From the IMG/VR virus record IMGVR_UViG_3300042317_001568, positions 1-64,000 of that record: a DNA stretch of 64,000 nucleotides; one strand, given 5' to 3'. This stretch comes from a virus. The notes below the pieces were generated by a model. The model was not told the DNA's origin, made no database searches, and was given only the letters and a program-made list of their open reading frames with translations. A program made the translations under genes and the position numbers. Positions 5,271-17,974 of the stretch are shown piece by piece (positions within the stretch are counted from its first letter, which is position 1; each line of letters begins with the position of its first letter).

Positions 5271-5314
5271 GCGGTCGACTGGGCGACCTAAAATAGGACT
5301 TAAGCCTAGTGCGT

Positions 5315-5336
5315 GGGGAGCGCTAATCCGCTCCCC
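5315..5336 (+). terminator. GC-rich hairpin after NTF2-like gene
   Basis: GGGGAGC and GCTCCCC form a perfect 7-bp stem with an 8-base loop 45 bases after the preceding stop. There is no T-run, so it may be an RNA 3'-end stabiliser rather than an intrinsic terminator. The rest of 5271-5530 shows no gene; it leads into the tRNA-Lys. Confidence 0.4.
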
Positions 5337-5530
5337 GATGTCTGCGTTCATAGTCGTTCATGATTGGCTGTGGCGTGGGTTATTGACACTCCTCGGCCTG
5401 CGTATGCCAACAGCCCTGCAAGGCTGCAAAAATACGTAGGCAGGCACGCCTGTGGTTGCAGCCGCAGTTTGGAAAGTCGCGCGCGTTATCGGGTTTCTCG
5501 GTGACGAAGTGTGGCGGCAGTGTCAGTCTC

Positions 5531-5852: not shown

Positions 5853-6133
5853 CGAACTTTGAGTATCCGGTGGAAGAGTGGTTCACCGGACAGTACGCAG
5901 ACATCCCAATCCATATGCAGGAGACGATCAAACGGTACGTGATTGAAAAAGTCAGGCCGGGTGATTTTCTTTCTGCTATCATCACGAACGATCTCCGCGG
6001 CGCCGTTAACTACGCGGACGCCGACAACCTAGCCCGGATCAAGTTGTATGTGCAGTGGTTTTACAACCGCGCGCCAGCAATTTGCTCGGGTAGCAAGGAA
6101 GCGATGACCAACTGGCTTTCGGGTAACGCGTAA
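5849..6133 (+). CDS. Hypothetical protein
   Basis: 94 residues, starting at the ATGA overlap with the previous gene. Soluble, mixed alpha/beta, ending 8 bases before tRNA-Leu. The pattern EEWFTGQYADIPIHMQETIKRYVIEKVRPGDFL... followed by ALxxAD-like NYADADNLARI is helical and reminiscent of small host-like proteins, but I do not recognise a named family. Confidence 0.6.
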   Translation: MTNFEYPVEEWFTGQYADIPIHMQETIKRYVIEKVRPGDFLSAIITNDLRGAVNYADADNLARIKLYVQWFYNRAPAICSGSKEAMTNWLSGNA

Positions 6134-11837: not shown

Positions 11838-11853
11838 AAAGCAGTGTTTTGAC

Positions 11854-11931
11854 GTAACTCCTTATCGCGCAGTAGTTTACGACCGCTGGCATATGCTATT
11901 TGTCGTAAATGTCTGTGCGGTAAGGAGTTAC
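11854..11931 (+). repeat. Long near-perfect inverted repeat / hairpin
   Basis: Three consecutive paired blocks, GTAACTCCTTA/TAAGGAGTTAC, TCGCGCAG/CTGTGCGG (wobbles) and TTTACGAC/GTCGTAAA, with one small internal loop, make about 27 bp closing an 18-base loop. There is no T-run and no gene inside. It could be an RNA processing site, a DNA cruciform or a protein-binding site. Confidence 0.7.
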
Positions 11932-11971
11932 GCAAAATACACCAAACGCAACGATCCGTTTTTTTAGCTAA

Positions 11972-12013
11972 TAGCGCCCCTGTATACTCATTTGTTTACA
12001 CAGGAGGGCGCTA
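11972..12013 (+). promoter_or_regulatory. Hairpin covering the ribosome site of a 23-codon ORF
   Basis: TAGCGCCC (11972-11979) pairs with GGGCGCTA (12006-12013) and CTGT with ACAG, enclosing the AGGAGGG ribosome site and the A of the ATG. Translation of the following mini-ORF would be blocked when folded. The 5' arm is part of the repeated TTTAGCTA-ATAGCGC element. Confidence 0.45.
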
Positions 12014-12084
12014 TGGATACCTGCAGCTTCGATTTTGAGGACATTATGTCCTTCCTGTTCGACGACGACTGGGACGCCGAATAG
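12013..12084 (+). CDS. Candidate 23-residue acidic peptide
   Basis: ATG 12013 preceded by AGGAGGGCGCT. The product is acidic (nine Asp/Glu in 23 residues) with aromatic residues, ending FDDDWDAE. Very short, so coding status is uncertain, but the ribosome site is excellent and is placed in a possible regulatory hairpin. It ends just before promoter-like copy B. Confidence 0.4.
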   Translation: MDTCSFDFEDIMSFLFDDDWDAE

Positions 12085-12110
12085 CCCTAAATACCCCCTA
12101 TGGCGAATAG

Positions 12111-12144
12111 CTAAATATAGGCCAAAAACAGGGTATATGAATTG
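12111..12144 (+). promoter_or_regulatory. Promoter-like element, copy B
   Basis: CTAAATA at 12111, CAAAAA at 12123, GGTATATGAATTG with TATAT at 12134: same 12/23 spacing as the other copies. It sits immediately before the 1-kb structured non-coding stretch. Confidence 0.65.
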
Positions 12145-13151
12145 ACGGGGATAATAGGTATTGCCTATAGACCCGTCCCGGAACCCGCTACGGTGAAAGT
12201 GGGACCAGACCTGCAGCAGCAGTGTTCTGGGCTTAATACTGCGGGGAAGCGCCGCAGGGCTGATGATCGGCCGCCACAATCCGTCGGGTCCGTTGCAGTG
12301 GACCAGTGAGACGTTAAAACAGAATCTCGACTGCGCGGCCTAATACGCCGTAACGTTCTGGCTGTAAAGTCAGATCGTTATCCGCACCGCTACAGGTGTG
12401 GGTGAGCCGGCCCTTCTCGATGGGGTCTGGTTTCCCGATGGGGGTGTGCACTCATTAGAGCACCTCCATTAAGACGTTGTGGCGCCTCTTCTGCGCGACC
12501 AACGTACGGCCTGTGTCAATATAAGTCGTACCCAAGGTACGCTTTTGAAACAGGGTTTGCTGCTAATTCCTCCAGCGCAGCACACGGTTTTCGCAAGCCG
12601 TCCAATCGGGAGTCGATTCAGTGTAGGGAGACAAAGTAGCCATGGCGAAATGTTTCCAGCAGTGTTGACAGGGCGTAACGCACCCTGTGTGTGACACACT
12701 GCGATCTACAGCTGCAATCGGCTGCGAACCCATCTTCGGTTCGTGAGTGGAGGACAATACACGCTAGCCGCAAGGCTGGCACGTCGTTTCTTCCGACGTA
12801 GCGGAAGAGGTTTGACCAACAAGCCTAACTGTTGGTGATCGTATGTGGGTTAAACCACAAACGTTCGCGAGCCGCTCAGTCGCCAAAGTTCCAAGAGCCC
12901 TTAGTTGCGTTACGGAAGTGAAACGCAACGGCTAGCCGTGTAGCAGGAACGTGTATTAAGACACGTACACGGCACAATAAACGCCTACCACCGGGCGATA
13001 TGGCGTGGCTGCCGCACGAGGGAAGTAACGTGCGTGGGGACCGGCACCTAGCCGGGGCTGTGGACGCACAGTTGACGCTTAAATGGAAGACGCGGCGAGG
13101 TGCACCTCAAAGCGAGCCGGGTTCGATTCCCGGCATAGTGTCTAGTTTTTT
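12145..13151 (+). ncRNA. Candidate giant structured non-coding RNA (about 1 kb)
   Basis: About 1,000 bases without a convincing gene, starting at promoter-like copy B and ending with a hairpin plus TTTTTT at 13146-13151. Hairpins are dense. Examples: GACGGG/CCCGTC (12144-12177), CTGCGG/CCGCAG (12239), CCGCACC/GGTGTGG (12382), GTGC/GCAC (12447), ACAGGG/CCCTGT (12667), GAACC/GGTTC (12725), CTAGCC-GCAA-GGCTGG (12763), ACGTCG/CGACGT (12781), CCAACA/TGTTGG (12817), GTTGCGTT/AACGCAAC (12904), CCGTGT/ACACGG enclosing ACGTGT/ACACGT (12936-12972), CCGGC/GCCGG (13041), CTGTG/CACAG (13059). The 3' end is a tRNA-like T-arm, GCCGGG-TTCGATT-CCCGGC (13115-13133). Size, phage setting, nearby tRNAs and the T-arm recall GOLLD-type giant RNAs, but no sequence match was tested. 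Any short ORFs inside lack ribosome sites. Confidence 0.65.
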
Positions 13152-13228
13152 GGCAAGGTACCGTTCCCTGCCACCCCATCTGAGGGCTTTTGAACGGACG
13201 CGTGTCTCGAAAGAGAAAGGGGAGTGCT

Positions 13229-14101
13229 ATGAGCACTTTCAAGTCAGTTGTCGCCAGCCCGTTTTACGGGTTCGGCTGGGTCGCTGGTCAGATCAAGAAC
13301 GGCTACGACAAGGCGGTGAACGCCACGTCGTCGGCCGCGTCGCAGGTGGCCACCGCCGCCACCTCGACGGCCAAGGCCGCCAAGGCCAAGGCCACCAAGG
13401 CGGGCAAGGCCGTGAAGGGCGGCGCCAAGGCGGCCAAGGCTGCTACGGTTAAGGCCGGCAGCTCGGCCAAGGCGAAGGTTGCGTCCTTCGCCCGCCACGC
13501 CGCCGCCGATGCCCGCGGGCTCGGCGCCATGCTGTTCGGCATGGTCAAAGTGGCCGCCGTGGGCGTTGTCACGATTGCCACCGCGGTTCTCCTCGGTGTC
13601 GTCAAGACGGTGGGCTTGGTGGCCCACGCCGTGGGGCTGATTGCCCTCGGCGTGGCGGCGTTGGTGGTGACTAGCTTCTCGCTGGTTGCCATTGCAGCGT
13701 TCTGCGTGGCGTTTCTCGCAACGCTCGCCGTGGTGTTCATCGTCCGCGGAATCTTCACAGCGCTCGCGGCTGTGGGGCGGTTTCTGACCGGCGAAGGCGG
13801 CATGGTTATCGCGACCGTGTTGCACGACCTGTCGGTGTTCTGCTGCTTCCTTGCCGCCGTTTACGCCTGCGTTGCGGTGGCGGCGGTGGCCATTCCGGCG
13901 CTCGGGATTGCCGCCGCCAATGCTGCCGCCGTGGCGGTGATCGCCACGTGGTGTGCCCTGCTGGGCGCGGGAACGGGGATTGCCGGCCTTCTGCTGGAGG
14001 CCGCCAACCGCCTCCCGGAGGTTGTGGTGTATGCGCCGCCCAGTCGGCGTATCCTGCCTAACGACGTCTATCCGGGCGTCATCGGCACCGCGACTGCCTG
14101 A
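13229..14101 (+). CDS. Histone-H1-like tail fused to multi-helix membrane domain
   Basis: 290 residues from ATG 13229 (AAAGGGGAG upstream). Residues about 30-95 are Ala/Lys/Thr-rich (KAAKAKATKAGKAVKGGAK...), like the C-terminal tail of histone H1. They are followed by five or so very hydrophobic Ala/Val-rich helices between about 105 and 270 and a short polar tail. Membrane localisation with a cytosolic, possibly DNA-binding, basic region is the simplest reading. Codons are strongly G/C-ending. It lies directly downstream of the giant RNA candidate. Function unknown. Confidence 0.65.
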   Translation: MSTFKSVVASPFYGFGWVAGQIKNGYDKAVNATSSAASQVATAATSTAKAAKAKATKAGKAVKGGAKAAKAATVKAGSSAKAKVASFARHAAADARGLGAMLFGMVKVAAVGVVTIATAVLLGVVKTVGLVAHAVGLIALGVAALVVTSFSLVAIAAFCVAFLATLAVVFIVRGIFTALAAVGRFLTGEGGMVIATVLHDLSVFCCFLAAVYACVAVAAVAIPALGIAAANAAAVAVIATWCALLGAGTGIAGLLLEAANRLPEVVVYAPPSRRILPNDVYPGVIGTATA

Positions 14102-14179
14102 CTAAGGTCGGGTAGTAAACATTGACGCGCACACACGCGTGGAGGGCAGCAAGCCACCTCCTTACCAAAAAAGAATTGC

Positions 14180-14215
14180 ACGGGCCGGTCACGCCGACGC
14201 AGGCCCGTTTCTTTT
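14180..14215 (+). terminator. Intrinsic terminator
   Basis: ACGGGCC (14180) pairs with GGCCCGT (14202) around a 15-base loop, followed by TTCTTTT. It separates the membrane protein from the HD hydrolase gene. Confidence 0.75.
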
Positions 14216-14259
14216 ATCTATTCCCAATCCCACATCCTTAAGAAAGGAACGCGTTAATT

Positions 14260-14886
14260 ATGGGAATTCTGGACACCAAGGCTGCCGTGGCGTGCACGGT
14301 TGCTCACGAGTCGATTCAGCAGATGCGGAAGTATGGCGACCGGCGCTATTACACGCACCCGCTGACGGTGGCCGCGCTCGTGCACACGCTGCCGGGCACG
14401 GACGAGGCGATGTTCGCTGCGGCGTGCCTCCATGACGTCATCGAAGACGTCTACCCGAAGAACCCCGCCTACGGCCCCGCGTGGGTTGCGAACAACTTCG
14501 GCGAGGAAGTGCTGCTGCTCGTTCATGAGCTCACCAACGAGTTCACGAAAGAGCGGTATCCCGACCTCAACCGCAACGAGCGGAAGCGGCGGGAGAGTCT
14601 GCGGCTCGCCGACATCTCCGACGCCGCGAAGGTTGTGAAGCAGGCAGACCTGTATCACAACAGCACGGAGATCAGCCCTGACACCCGCTTCTGGGGTCAA
14701 TGGTTGAAGGAGAAGAACGAGCTCGACGAGCTCATCGGCGCGTGGGAGGACCGCGAGTGCGGCTTCCTCACGGGTGGCGACGTCTGGAGTCTTGTCGGCT
14801 CTGGCGAGTTCAAGATGCTCGTCGCTACGGCGCACGAGATCGACGAGTTCTACAAGGTCGCCGACTGGGGCCTTGTGACTGCGTAA
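14260..14886 (+). CDS. HD-domain hydrolase, RSH/Mesh1-like (possible (p)ppGpp hydrolase)
   Basis: 208 residues, AAGAAAGGA before ATG. HD-superfamily residues are in RSH order: YYTHPLTVAALVHTL (His about 33), CLHDVIEDV (about 57-65, the HD and ED pair) and KQADLYHN (about 127-134, equivalent to KLADRLHN of SpoT/Mesh1). The size matches single-domain small alarmone hydrolases, with no synthetase domain. By family knowledge it would degrade (p)ppGpp or a similar nucleotide and damp the stringent response during infection. Substrate is not proven. G/C-ending codons suggest recent acquisition. Confidence 0.75.
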   Translation: MGILDTKAAVACTVAHESIQQMRKYGDRRYYTHPLTVAALVHTLPGTDEAMFAAACLHDVIEDVYPKNPAYGPAWVANNFGEEVLLLVHELTNEFTKERYPDLNRNERKRRESLRLADISDAAKVVKQADLYHNSTEISPDTRFWGQWLKEKNELDELIGAWEDRECGFLTGGDVWSLVGSGEFKMLVATAHEIDEFYKVADWGLVTA

Positions 14887-14894
14887 ACAATTGG

Positions 14895-14930
14895 CGCGGC
14901 AGGGAGTCCTGCCCTCCCGCACCTTTTGTT
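14895..14930 (+). terminator. Intrinsic terminator
   Basis: GGCAGG-GAGT-CCTGCC hairpin after the HD gene, followed by CACCTTTTGTTT; the T-run merges into a TTTAGCTATTAGCGC element. Confidence 0.65.
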
Positions 14931-14943
14931 TAGCTATTAGCGC
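14929..14943 (+). repeat. Repeated 15-bp element TTTAGCTATYAGCGC
   Basis: Near-identical copies lie at 11963-11977, 14929-14943, 15570-15584, 17330-17344, 17921-17935 and, inside a coding region, 19586-19600. The intergenic copies start in a T-run, in most cases that of a terminator, and the copies at 14929, 15570 and 17330 are followed 18-19 bases from their start by the CTAAAT promoter-like element. Probably an upstream control site. Confidence 0.6.
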
Positions 14944-14947
14944 GTAG

Positions 14948-14981
14948 CTAAATATACGACAAATAAACGGCATATCTAATG
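14948..14981 (+). promoter_or_regulatory. Promoter-like element, copy C
   Basis: AGCTAAATA with C at 14948, CAAAT at 14960, CGGCATATCTAATG with CATAT at 14971. Spacing is 12 and 23. It precedes the 2H phosphoesterase gene at 15070. Confidence 0.7.
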
Positions 14982-15069
14982 AGTACCGGGAATCATATTG
15001 CCACTGGTACTTGAGTTTTAAGCCGCACATCCGGCTAGCTCCACAAGGCAATTCTGAAGGAGCCCACAA

Positions 15070-15492
15070 ATGGCATCTATCTACACCGCCGTCCTCCTGA
15101 CCGAAGAGTCCCGCCAGAACCTGATCGCGTTCTACGGTCTCACGTCGTTCTACGCGGAGGGTTGGGTCATCAAGGCCCACCACATGACGATCGATACCAA
15201 GTCTGCGGATAAGGCCGGCGTCGCGGACTTGGTCGGCAAAGAGTTCACGATGGACGTGACCGCCGTCGGCAGGCTCATGGTGGACGACACCCGCGGCATC
15301 GTCGCCGTGACTGTCGAGACTGCGGCCCCGTCGAAAAACGCCATCAAGCACGTCACGGTGGCGCACGCGGATGGCGTCAAGCCTATGATGTCTAACAACA
15401 TCACCGACTGGCGGCCCGTCAAGCCGGGCACGCTCACGCTCACGGGCGTCGTGTGCATGCTTGAGTCGGCTCCCGTGCCGGCGAAGAGCTGA
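15070..15492 (+). CDS. 2H phosphoesterase-like protein
   Basis: 140 residues, GAAGGAG upstream of ATG. Two HxTx motifs, HHMTID (about 37-42) and HVTVAH (about 94-99), with the spacing expected for the 2H (LigT/SAK) superfamily. These enzymes hydrolyse or ligate 2',3'-cyclic phosphates at RNA ends. N-terminal YTAVLLTEESRQNLIAFY is the first strand and helix. It stands alone between promoter-like copy C and a terminator. With the cpREC and HAD-SAK genes it suggests RNA-end repair. A second 2H protein is at 37926. Confidence 0.7.
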   Translation: MASIYTAVLLTEESRQNLIAFYGLTSFYAEGWVIKAHHMTIDTKSADKAGVADLVGKEFTMDVTAVGRLMVDDTRGIVAVTVETAAPSKNAIKHVTVAHADGVKPMMSNNITDWRPVKPGTLTLTGVVCMLESAPVPAKS

Positions 15493-15538
15493 ACACTCGC
15501 GGCGGCTTACAACGCCGCGCAGTAGGTCTGCATAGACC

Positions 15539-15572
15539 AGCCCCCAAACCGAAAGGTGCGGGGGCTTTTTTT
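15539..15572 (+). terminator. Intrinsic terminator
   Basis: AGCCCCC (15539) pairs with GGGGGCT (15560), followed by TTTTTTT that leads into the TTTAGCTATCAGCGC repeat. Smaller hairpins (GCGGCG/CGCCGC, GGTCT/AGACC) lie just upstream. Confidence 0.9.
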
Positions 15573-15587
15573 AGCTATCAGCGCGTG

Positions 15588-15621
15588 CTAAATATGGAAC
15601 AAATGCGCGGCATATTGATTG
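15588..15621 (+). promoter_or_regulatory. Promoter-like element, copy D
   Basis: CTAAATA at 15588, CAAAT at 15600, CGGCATATTGATTG with CATAT at 15611. It precedes the small gene at 15679 and the zinc protein at 15806. Confidence 0.7.
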
Positions 15622-15678
15622 TGCGCCAGTGATTTTTTGTTGGCGCGGGTTTGTTGACAACTGCAAAAGGACCTTGCG

Positions 15679-15780
15679 GTGTTTGAATTCTTTGACAACA
15701 TGTCGCTCAGCTCCTTGATGGCGTTCGCGTTAAGTACGTCATGGGTGCTTAGTTCTTTGTGTGAATTGTTCGAGGAGTAA
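15679..15780 (+). CDS. 33-residue hydrophobic peptide
   Basis: GTG start, AAAAGGA 8 bases upstream. One amphipathic or membrane helix (SLMAFALSTSWVLSSLCELF) ending FEE. First possible gene after promoter-like copy D. Short, so moderate confidence. Confidence 0.45.
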   Translation: MFEFFDNMSLSSLMAFALSTSWVLSSLCELFEE

Positions 15781-15805
15781 CGCTCTTTAAGAAGGGAGTC
15801 GTCCG

Positions 15806-16303
15806 GTGGATATTTTTCTAGACATAAAAAGGCAGCAAGAATACGCGAAACAGCTGGAAGACGGCGACAGGCGTAACGTGGAAGACTGGGCCCGCAACCA
15901 AGAGCGCCGTAATGAGGCAAAGCGCCGCGGCCTTTTTCAGCGCGATAAGCCCAAAGAGCGCCGCATTGCTATTTTTCAGCGCTGGCAAAAAATGCGTAAA
16001 GCGAGTGCCATCAAGCTGCGCGCCCCGGACGGCGACTCTAGGTTTTGTTTATGTAAATGCGGTCGGCCCAAGGCGTGCGCACAAACGCACTGCTACGACT
16101 GTCAGGACATGATGTTTATTGTCCGGCACAGGATACCAATGTCTGGCGCAGTAGAAGTCGAAAAGCGATATGGGCGAATATACGAAACGCCCCTGCTGCG
16201 CCACGACATCGACTACCGATCGTCTAGGTACGAGGACAGTGAGAACTTCGGTAGCCTCCACAATGTGATTCGGGCGATGGAAGACTCCCTAGCGTACGAT
16301 TAA
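15806..16303 (+). CDS. Basic protein with Cys cluster (probable zinc finger)
   Basis: 165 residues from GTG 15806, AAGAAGGGAG upstream. The N-terminal 70 residues are charged and helical (Arg/Lys/Glu/Gln). The middle has CLCKCGRPKACAQTHCYDC (about 75-93), a dense Cys pattern for one or two zinc ions. The rest is acidic. Nucleic-acid binding is plausible. It ends 3 bases before promoter-like copy E1. Confidence 0.6.
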   Translation: MDIFLDIKRQQEYAKQLEDGDRRNVEDWARNQERRNEAKRRGLFQRDKPKERRIAIFQRWQKMRKASAIKLRAPDGDSRFCLCKCGRPKACAQTHCYDCQDMMFIVRHRIPMSGAVEVEKRYGRIYETPLLRHDIDYRSSRYEDSENFGSLHNVIRAMEDSLAYD

Positions 16304-16306
16304 ACG

Positions 16307-16340
16307 CTAAATAGTCTCCAAAAGCCTGACATATACAGAA
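16307..16340 (+). promoter_or_regulatory. Promoter-like element, copy E1
   Basis: CTAAATA at 16307, CAAAA at 16319, GACATAT with CATAT at 16330. Same 12/23 spacing; the 3' part (ACAGAA) is the most divergent copy. In tandem with E2. Confidence 0.55.
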
Positions 16341-16359
16341 AATGCGGGTTTCTGCTGAG

Positions 16360-16393
16360 CTAAATATTCAGCAAAAACACGGCATATCTAGTG
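16360..16393 (+). promoter_or_regulatory. Promoter-like element, copy E2
   Basis: AGCTAAATA with C at 16360, CAAAAA at 16372, CGGCATATCTAGTG with CATAT at 16383. It directly precedes the second long structured non-coding stretch. Confidence 0.7.
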
Positions 16394-17046
16394 CTCAGCG
16401 CGCTAGCTGTCGACGGCTACGCGCTAATTGACGTGAATTCGTTCTGAGCCTGCGCGGTGTACCATTGCTTGAACGGATGCTTCCGTGGTGATTCGAGCAG
16501 TGAGTAAAAGCTGCGCAGGCTTTTCCGTAAATACGTCCGCGGCAGGCAGTTAAGCCGCGTAGAAAACTGCCAATACACTCGACCTTCGCCTTGCGAGAAT
16601 GCGGCGAACAGAATCTGCCGTCACGGGCACCATCTTTGGTGGCTCGAAAGTTGGGCGATCATCGGCCCAAAGGCGGGATAGGACGCACACTATCCGCGCT
16701 ACGCGATTTGTAAATCCCAAAGTGGAAGGAGGAAATGTCGAATTCCCAAAGCAAGGAATTCCGTAGCAGGCTGTGTAAGACTGCGCAAAAAGCATTTCCA
16801 AGCGCCCCGGACCGCTAGCTCAAACACAACGACGCTAGAAGAGGGTTCGGTACCGGATGGGCCGGTCGTGATTCATAGCATAAACCTGCGTTTGTTACTT
16901 TGGTCGGCCAACCAAATAATAAACAAAGGCGCTACTGCAGTCGGTCGTACAACTGACTGTAGAGTAATCGCGTGACTGATGAGGATAGCAAACACGTAGT
17001 TGGGGAACTCGTAGCAGGTTAGCGTCTGCTGCGATGCTTCTTCCCA
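16394..17046 (+). ncRNA. Candidate second large structured non-coding RNA (about 650 nt)
   Basis: No convincing gene in about 650 bases downstream of promoter-like copies E1/E2. Strong paired elements: AGCGCG-TAGC/GCTA-CGCGCT (16397-16425), GCCTGCGC/GCGCAGGC (16448-16519) enclosing ACGGA-TGCT-TCCGT, an H-type pseudoknot (16539-16571), TTCGCC/GGCGAA (16584), TTGGGC/GCCCAA (16651), GGATAG/CTATCC (16676), GGAAATG/CATTTCC (16731-16799) enclosing GAATTCC/GGAATTC, TTTGGT/ACCAAA within GTTTGTTA/TAATAAAC (16889-16923), CTAC/GTAG enclosing GCAGTC/GACTG (16932-16963), AGCAG/CTGCT (17012). The 3' end is not marked by an obvious terminator, so the RNA may continue into the gene at 17104. Relation to the 1-kb RNA is unknown. 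Confidence 0.6.
16539..16571 (+). other. H-type RNA pseudoknot
   Basis: GCGGC (16539-16543) pairs with GCCGC (16554-16558), while the loop segment GGCAGTT (16545-16551) pairs with AACTGCC (16565-16571). Two perfect interleaved stems, a textbook pseudoknot within the second large RNA. Confidence 0.7.
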
Positions 17047-17103
17047 AAGGTGGTGCCCGTGACGGCAGTTGTTAGTTTAACCCCTAAGAAAGGATGGACT
17101 CTC

Positions 17104-17319
17104 ATGTTGTTTATTGGAATGCTCGGTGCGGTGTTCGTGCTCGGTGCGGTTGCTGGGACCATCAGCGACATGGTCAATACCGAAAAGCCTAAAATGGCCA
17201 CCACGTTTACTCGTGTTTCGACCAAGGTCACGAGCGGTATCGTCGACGTGGACCCGAATGGCAACATCATCAGGATCACCGACGCCTCCGGGCGCGTGGT
17301 CTATGAGGAGGGGGCTTAA
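17104..17319 (+). CDS. Small membrane-anchored protein
   Basis: 71 residues from ATG 17104 (AGAAAGGA upstream). One N-terminal helix (MLFIGMLGAVFVLGAVAGTI) then a soluble beta-rich tail (SGIVDVDPNGNIIRITDASGRVVYEEG). Only gene after the second large RNA. The stop codon lies inside a short GGGC/GCCC hairpin. Function unknown. Confidence 0.55.
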   Translation: MLFIGMLGAVFVLGAVAGTISDMVNTEKPKMATTFTRVSTKVTSGIVDVDPNGNIIRITDASGRVVYEEGA

Positions 17320-17331
17320 CGCCCTTTCTTT
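17312..17331 (+). terminator. Short terminator-like hairpin
   Basis: GGGC-TTAAC-GCCC followed by TTTCTTTT, overlapping the stop codon of the preceding gene and leading into the TTTAGCTATCAGCGC repeat at 17330. Confidence 0.5.
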
Positions 17332-17348
17332 TAGCTATCAGCGCCCAC

Positions 17349-17892: not shown

Positions 17893-17923
17893 GGGGGTGT
17901 GCAAACGCGCGCCCCCTTTTTTT
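17893..17923 (+). terminator. Intrinsic terminator
   Basis: GGGGGTGTGC-AAAC-GCGCGCCCCC, 10 bp with two G-T, followed by TTTTTTT merging into the repeat TTTAACTATCAGCGC. Confidence 0.85.
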
Positions 17924-17974
17924 AACTATCAGCGCTCCGTTGCCATTCTATTCCCTTTTTGTCACAATATTCGT

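What the first reader, a model, noticed from the sequence alone, without database searches (positions are those of the whole stretch)
16394..17046. Second large structured RNA locus with H-type pseudoknot
About 650 bases with no supported gene, directly downstream of tandem promoter-like copies E1/E2, with at least eight strong stems and a perfect H-type pseudoknot at 16539-16571. Two separate giant RNA loci under the same promoter class in one phage would be unusual.
Basis: partly seen in the sequence, partly recalled or inferred. Interest (0 to 1): 0.8.

Follow-up and report, generated by a model that had tools for sequence, protein, structure and literature searches.

The report
Large structured RNA in jumbo phage
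A large bacterial virus carries a gene whose product appears to be a roughly 650-base folded RNA rather than a protein; its core shape is kept in a distant relative although much of the sequence has changed, so it very probably does a job as RNA, and that job is unknown.

Summary
Window 16388-17103 folds far better than shuffles or coding stretches of the same phage (z -8.7; 25 controls -4.4 to +1.2). No shared ORF fits it. Two copies of a phage promoter (CTAAATA-N14-GGCATAT) precede it, and the H-type pseudoknot is exact at 16538-16571. A homolog in a second phage (G020, locus L087) keeps the core, 16615-17068, at 59% identity. The two folds, predicted separately, share 79 pairs, 26 with both bases changed; 60 controls gave at most 18 and 4. 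In the consensus, 40 of 122 pairs are compensatory. The flanking genes are unrelated, so the RNA is what is conserved. The 5' third with the pseudoknot has no homolog, so it is structured but unproven. The RNA most likely acts in trans as a large structured RNA, first transcribed together with a small ORF (17104-17319). It matches no Rfam family. Related phages (IMG/VR) carry other sequence-unrelated, large noncoding units under the same promoter, so 'two giant RNAs in one phage' is supported but not unusual for this clade. Function, transcription and oligomeric state are untested.

The parts
16307..16334 (+). upstream promoter copy (E1), CTAAATA-N14-GGCATAT class, 1 mismatch
16360..16387 (+). 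downstream promoter copy (E2), exact match to the phage promoter class
   Evidence: control patterns 0
16388..16604 (+). 5' domain of the RNA: hairpins plus pseudoknot; no homolog found
   Evidence: B5 z -3.9
16538..16571 (+). exact H-type pseudoknot (stems 6 and 7, loops 1, 2, 5)
16615..17068 (+). conserved core of the RNA, multibranched, closed by a long helix; homologous to L087 1396-1847
16615..16639 (+). 5' strand of closing helix P1 (pairs with 17044-17068); 9 of its 23 consensus pairs changed on both sides in the homolog
17044..17068 (+). 3' strand of closing helix P1
16721..16862 (+). most conserved block (79% identical over 16719-16856), used for covariance model R1
17009..17034 (+). 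conserved hairpin near the 3' end of the core; listed by the terminator scan but conserved by compensation as a helix of the RNA
17104..17319 (+). 71-aa ORF with an N-terminal hydrophobic stretch, probably on the same transcript; not conserved with the RNA
17310..17338 (+). probable end of the unit: short GC hairpin, T run and the clade's TTTTAGCTATCAG tail; not listed by the terminator scan because the stem is short

Best explanation
The locus encodes a large structured noncoding RNA of a jumbo phage. Shown: a compact ~455-nt core closed by a long helix, conserved in structure in a second phage; the same promoter class directly upstream in both; unrelated genes on either side. Inferred: the phage's own transcription machinery reads it from tandem promoters at 16307 and 16360 into one RNA of about 950 nt that also carries the 71-aa ORF and ends near 17338. 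Inferred: the core folds on its own and acts in trans as an RNA machine or scaffold, in the manner of the large ornate phage RNAs GOLLD and ROOL. The 25-bp closing helix may protect it or let a host nuclease such as RNase III release it from the ORF part. The less conserved 5' domain with the pseudoknot would be a variable appendage.
For: Homolog in G020 (strong match in 1 of 13 records, E 9e-25; other matches E 0.06 or worse) at the same place before the MPF[K/R]SEKQ gene and after an exact promoter. 40 of 122 consensus pairs compensatory against 1-5 when the partner is slid. Independent folds share 79 pairs, 26 changed on both sides; antisense 45 and 18; controls at most 18 and 4. The ORFs 3' of the RNA do not align, those 5' give only chance words, and the 3' ORF has no convincing match in 15 related records (best E 0.03). 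The locus is identical in three same-species contigs while one of them has 15 SNPs in 8.5 kb around it. Promoter motif 8 or 9 times in each of six ~200-kb genomes, one strand only, 0 in controls. Other units of the clade are RNA only, from promoter to terminator tail (L046, L072, L227).
Against: Only two distinct sequences support the covariation; no third homolog was found. No RNA-seq, so transcription, ends and processing are inferred. The helix ends 35 nt before the ORF here and 38 nt before the other ORF in G020, which a leader would also give. The 5' domain has no conservation evidence. The in-trans role rests on analogy.
Confidence: 0.62

Rival explanations
1. It is a very long 5' leader that controls, in cis, translation or decay of the small ORF that follows (a riboswitch-like or RNA-thermometer-like element or a stabiliser).
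For: The closing helix ends 35-38 nt before an ATG in both phages (sequence); no terminator between RNA and ORF; in the G011 RNA C a pseudoknot lies just before the ribosome-binding site.
Against: The ORF after it is different in the two phages and lacks a convincing match in 15 records. Sister RNAs D and L072 have no ORF before their terminators, and RNA F lies 3' of its ORF.
Confidence: 0.27
2. It is a very divergent member of a described class of large phage RNA (GOLLD or ROOL).
For: Same size class, pseudoknot, phage location on the same genome as tRNA and tmRNA genes.
Against: No Rfam match up to E 10 for either homolog, in a library of 4227 families; that GOLLD and ROOL are among them is from PMC12286853 passages, whose authors fetched their profiles from Rfam.
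Confidence: 0.06
3. It is a mobile RNA element such as an intron remnant, or a decayed gene.
For: The locus is an island: G006, a relative, lacks it and has only small ORFs in that place.
Against: No group I or II intron match; both copies follow a promoter rather than interrupting a gene; a decayed gene would not keep 40 compensatory pairs.
Confidence: 0.03

Closest known systems
ROOL RNA
   Same: Large (659-nt example) phage and prophage RNA with complex branches and pseudoknots, often near tRNA islands, function unknown (PMC12286853 passages).
   Different: No Rfam match; here it precedes a small ORF and follows a phage promoter; oligomerisation untested.
GOLLD RNA
   Same: [quoted passage not shown] the present RNA also has a conserved 3' core and an unconserved 5' domain.
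   Different: No Rfam match; smaller; no tRNA in this RNA.
Other promoter-linked noncoding units of the same phage clade (RNA A of this window, C and D of G011, L072, L227, F of L071 and L076)
   Same: Same promoter class and terminator tail, 0.45-1.1 kb, noncoding-looking, fold z -3.3 to -9.3.
   Different: No sequence similarity to this RNA; covariation is moderate for C (7 pairs), slight for F (4), weak for D and E, not tested for A.

Membership tests
GOLLD / ROOL | matches the Rfam covariance model | tested here: not met
   window 11900-17200, E up to 10; L087
GOLLD / ROOL | large (over about 500 nt) structured noncoding RNA of a phage | tested here: met
   core 454 nt, probable full RNA ~650-700 nt; transcription itself not shown
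GOLLD / ROOL | close to tRNA genes | tested here: inconclusive
   six tRNAs and a tmRNA at 5.5-10.3 kb on the same strand; the tmRNA ends about 6.1 kb away
GOLLD / ROOL | forms homo-oligomeric RNA-only cages | not testable with these tools
   needs cryo-EM or native gels
group I / group II introns | Rfam intron model match and a split gene | tested here: not met
   flanks are promoter and intergenic sequence
cis-regulatory leader (riboswitch-like) | constant association with one gene family | tested here: not met
   downstream ORFs do not align; no convincing match in 15 records (best E 0.03)
CTAAATA-N14-GGCATAT phage promoter regulon (defined here) | exact spacing of 14, same strand throughout a genome | tested here: met
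   six genomes 8-9 sites each, 0 in controls

The most novel reading that the evidence does not exclude
This clade of jumbo phages runs a dedicated promoter regulon whose products include a rapidly changing set of giant, modular RNAs (0.45 to about 1.1 kb and perhaps more) that act as RNA machines or RNA-only assemblies. Modules are shuffled between them (L227 joins parts of RNA C and RNA D), and the window's RNA is one conserved member.
Probability: 0.35. Interest if true: 0.88.

Novelty: new variant of a known kind. Interest (0 to 1): 0.66.

Why it matters
Large structured phage RNAs are few and their functions are poorly understood. This is a family absent from Rfam, with strong compensatory support, inside a phage group that seems to carry several such RNAs behind one recognisable promoter. 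That promoter gives a simple way to find more of them and to ask what phages use giant RNAs for.

Tried and rejected
More homologs of the core: three DNA patterns in viral contigs gave only same-species contigs, G020 and chance hits (read). Two patterns in genome contigs gave 0. Plasmid and phage records gave nothing convincing. Model R1 matched 5 of 20 records (four of the same species and G020), then 0 of 14, and only L079, the G020 copy, among 30 loci.

Scan for relatives by the MPFKSEKQ gene: 80 loci kept of 515; by promoter content most look like other phages; nothing new for this RNA.

Shared domains with the 12.1-13.2 kb RNA: none by sequence.

Shared pairs alone as evidence for RNA: rejected as a sole test, because a coding control also shared 57 pairs; only pairs changed on both sides were weighed.

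A pseudoknot shared by both homologs: none found. Hammerhead-like letters near 16975 (my own reading, recalled consensus): not supported by Rfam.

Full report
What the sequence shows. The window is part of a 205,010-base IMG/VR virus record with a tmRNA, tRNAs, a Pistol ribozyme and a multisubunit RNA polymerase gene. Between the end of ORF 15806-16303 and ORF 17104-17319 lie 800 bases. Every ORF of at least 35 aa inside them scores negative for coding on both strands; the model is not perfect, since it also misses ORF 15806-16303. The stretch folds with z -10.05 (801 nt, 20 shuffles). In a second run 16388-17103 gave z -8.7, against 25 control windows of 700 nt between -4.4 and +1.2. The antisense strand folds well too, so the energy alone does not choose the strand.

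Promoters. The motif CTAAATA-N14-GGCATAT occurs at 16307 (1 mismatch) and 16360 (exact). With up to one mismatch it occurs 9, 8, 9, 9, 9 and 8 times in six genomes of about 200 kb (G000, G015, G018, G019, G021, G024), always on one strand of each genome, and 0 times when the pattern is read backwards. In two distant isolates it is absent (2 of 2). I call it a promoter by position and by the spacing of its boxes; no experiment shows it.

The homolog. A search of 13 related records with window 16388-17330 found one strong match, in G020 (79% over 138 query bases, E 9e-25); the other matches had E of 0.06 or worse. In G020 (locus L087) the RNA follows an exact promoter and lies before a gene starting MPFRSEKQ; in the window the MPFKSEKQ gene follows in the same direction. 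Over 495 aligned columns the two are 59% identical.

Covariation. RNAalifold gives 122 pairs, 40 with both sides changed and kept. The pair count confirms this: slid versions have 1 to 5 such pairs, and 0 of 500 shuffles reach the observed values. The structure came from these same two sequences, so I also folded each alone: 79 pairs coincide and 26 are changed on both sides. Column-shuffled controls gave at most 11 shared (30 controls) or at most 18 shared and 4 changed on both sides (60 controls). The antisense strands share 45 and 18, so the sense strand fits better. Helix 16615-16639 with 17044-17068 closes the domain.

The 5' third. 16388-16604 is absent from G020, where the closing helix starts about 20 nt after the promoter. 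It has z -3.9 and an exact H-type pseudoknot, 16538-16571: one such site on the + strand of 64 kb, 13 in 40 shuffles of the whole window. With stems of at least 6 pairs, 2 of 7 RNAs of this kind have one (this one and RNA C of G011) against 0.05 expected, and 1 of 54 coding windows does. It is probably real but not shown to be conserved.

The ORF after it. The 71-aa ORF does not align with the 83-aa ORF of G020 and has no convincing match in 15 records (best E 0.03). The ORFs before the RNA give only six- and nine-residue words. So the RNA, not its neighbours, is the conserved element. Yet the helix ends 35 and 38 nt before an ATG, and no terminator separates them, so the two are probably on one transcript. 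A leader role is the main rival.

The clade. Promoter scans of viral contigs (18 and 64 stretches) led to 73 promoter-terminator units, of which 40 have a stretch of at least 330 nt without coding signal. Caution: the coding model was trained on this window, some units are nested, and a few motif hits look like other phages (for example L252 and L268, z -1.0 and 0.1). Clear RNA-only units are D (L046), L072 and L227. L227 joins a C-like 5' part (E 4e-20) to D-like pieces (E 4e-14 and 5e-5). Covariation there is moderate for C (7 pairs), slight for F (4) and weak for D and E.

Comparison with the known. No Rfam family matches either homolog at a believable score: nothing overlaps the RNA up to E 10. 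The Nature 2025 paper on GOLLD, ROOL and OLE (PMC12286853; I read passages found by term search) says that GOLLD and ROOL occur in phages and prophages near tRNA islands, form RNA-only cages and have poorly understood functions. The present RNA resembles them in kind but fails the model test. Text searches for large structured RNAs in jumbo or huge phages (listings only) brought no description of this RNA; most subscription papers and preprints are not covered.

Verdict. The finding is real: a conserved, large structured RNA, most likely noncoding and acting in trans, of unknown job. The core claim (conserved RNA structure) I hold at about 0.95; the in-trans role at about 0.62.

Noticed in passing
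window 12139-13190: RNA A: about 1 kb without coding signal after a promoter at 12111 (z -5.6 for 12139-13150), ending in a tRNA T-arm-like hairpin (GCCGGGTTCGATTCCCGGC); no homolog found.
   Followed up: partly
L227 11551-12633: A promoter-to-terminator unit of 1.08 kb with no coding signal that joins sequence like RNA C (G011) and RNA D (G011), and also has a T-arm-like hairpin: modular giant RNAs.
   Followed up: partly
L045 8218-7760 (minus strand), G011: RNA C: about 460 nt after an exact promoter in a syntenic place, with an exact H-type pseudoknot just before a ribosome-binding site and a 52-aa ORF.
   Followed up: partly
L046 (minus strand) and L070, after promoter CTAAATATTGGGCAAAAACCGGGCATAT: RNA D: stand-alone noncoding unit of about 610 nt between promoter and terminator.
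   Followed up: partly
L072, minus strand, from the promoter at 5952 of the reverse strand: Stand-alone noncoding unit of about 610 nt ending in a strong terminator.
   Followed up: partly
L071, L069, L076 (families E and F): About 190-nt conserved leader, then an ORF of 74-81 aa, then about 500 nt noncoding (F) up to the terminator; E also in L074, L077, L080, L259, with weaker matches in L234 and L241.
   Followed up: partly
L250 from 158, L233 minus strand: Units of 1.86 kb (z -11.6) and 0.63 kb (z -9.0) without coding signal after the promoter motif; not examined further and could be coding in a phage of other composition.
   Followed up: no
window 5273-5343: Pistol ribozyme (Rfam 58.1 bits) just upstream of a tRNA-Lys in the phage tRNA region.
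   Followed up: no
window, e.g. 15569-15584, 17328-17338, 17917-17935: Terminators of the clade carry a conserved tail TTTTAGCTATCAGCGC after the T run, often just before the next promoter.
   Followed up: partly
window 11848-11937: Inverted repeat with 45-nt arms, 76% complementary and no spacer, upstream of RNA A.
   Followed up: no
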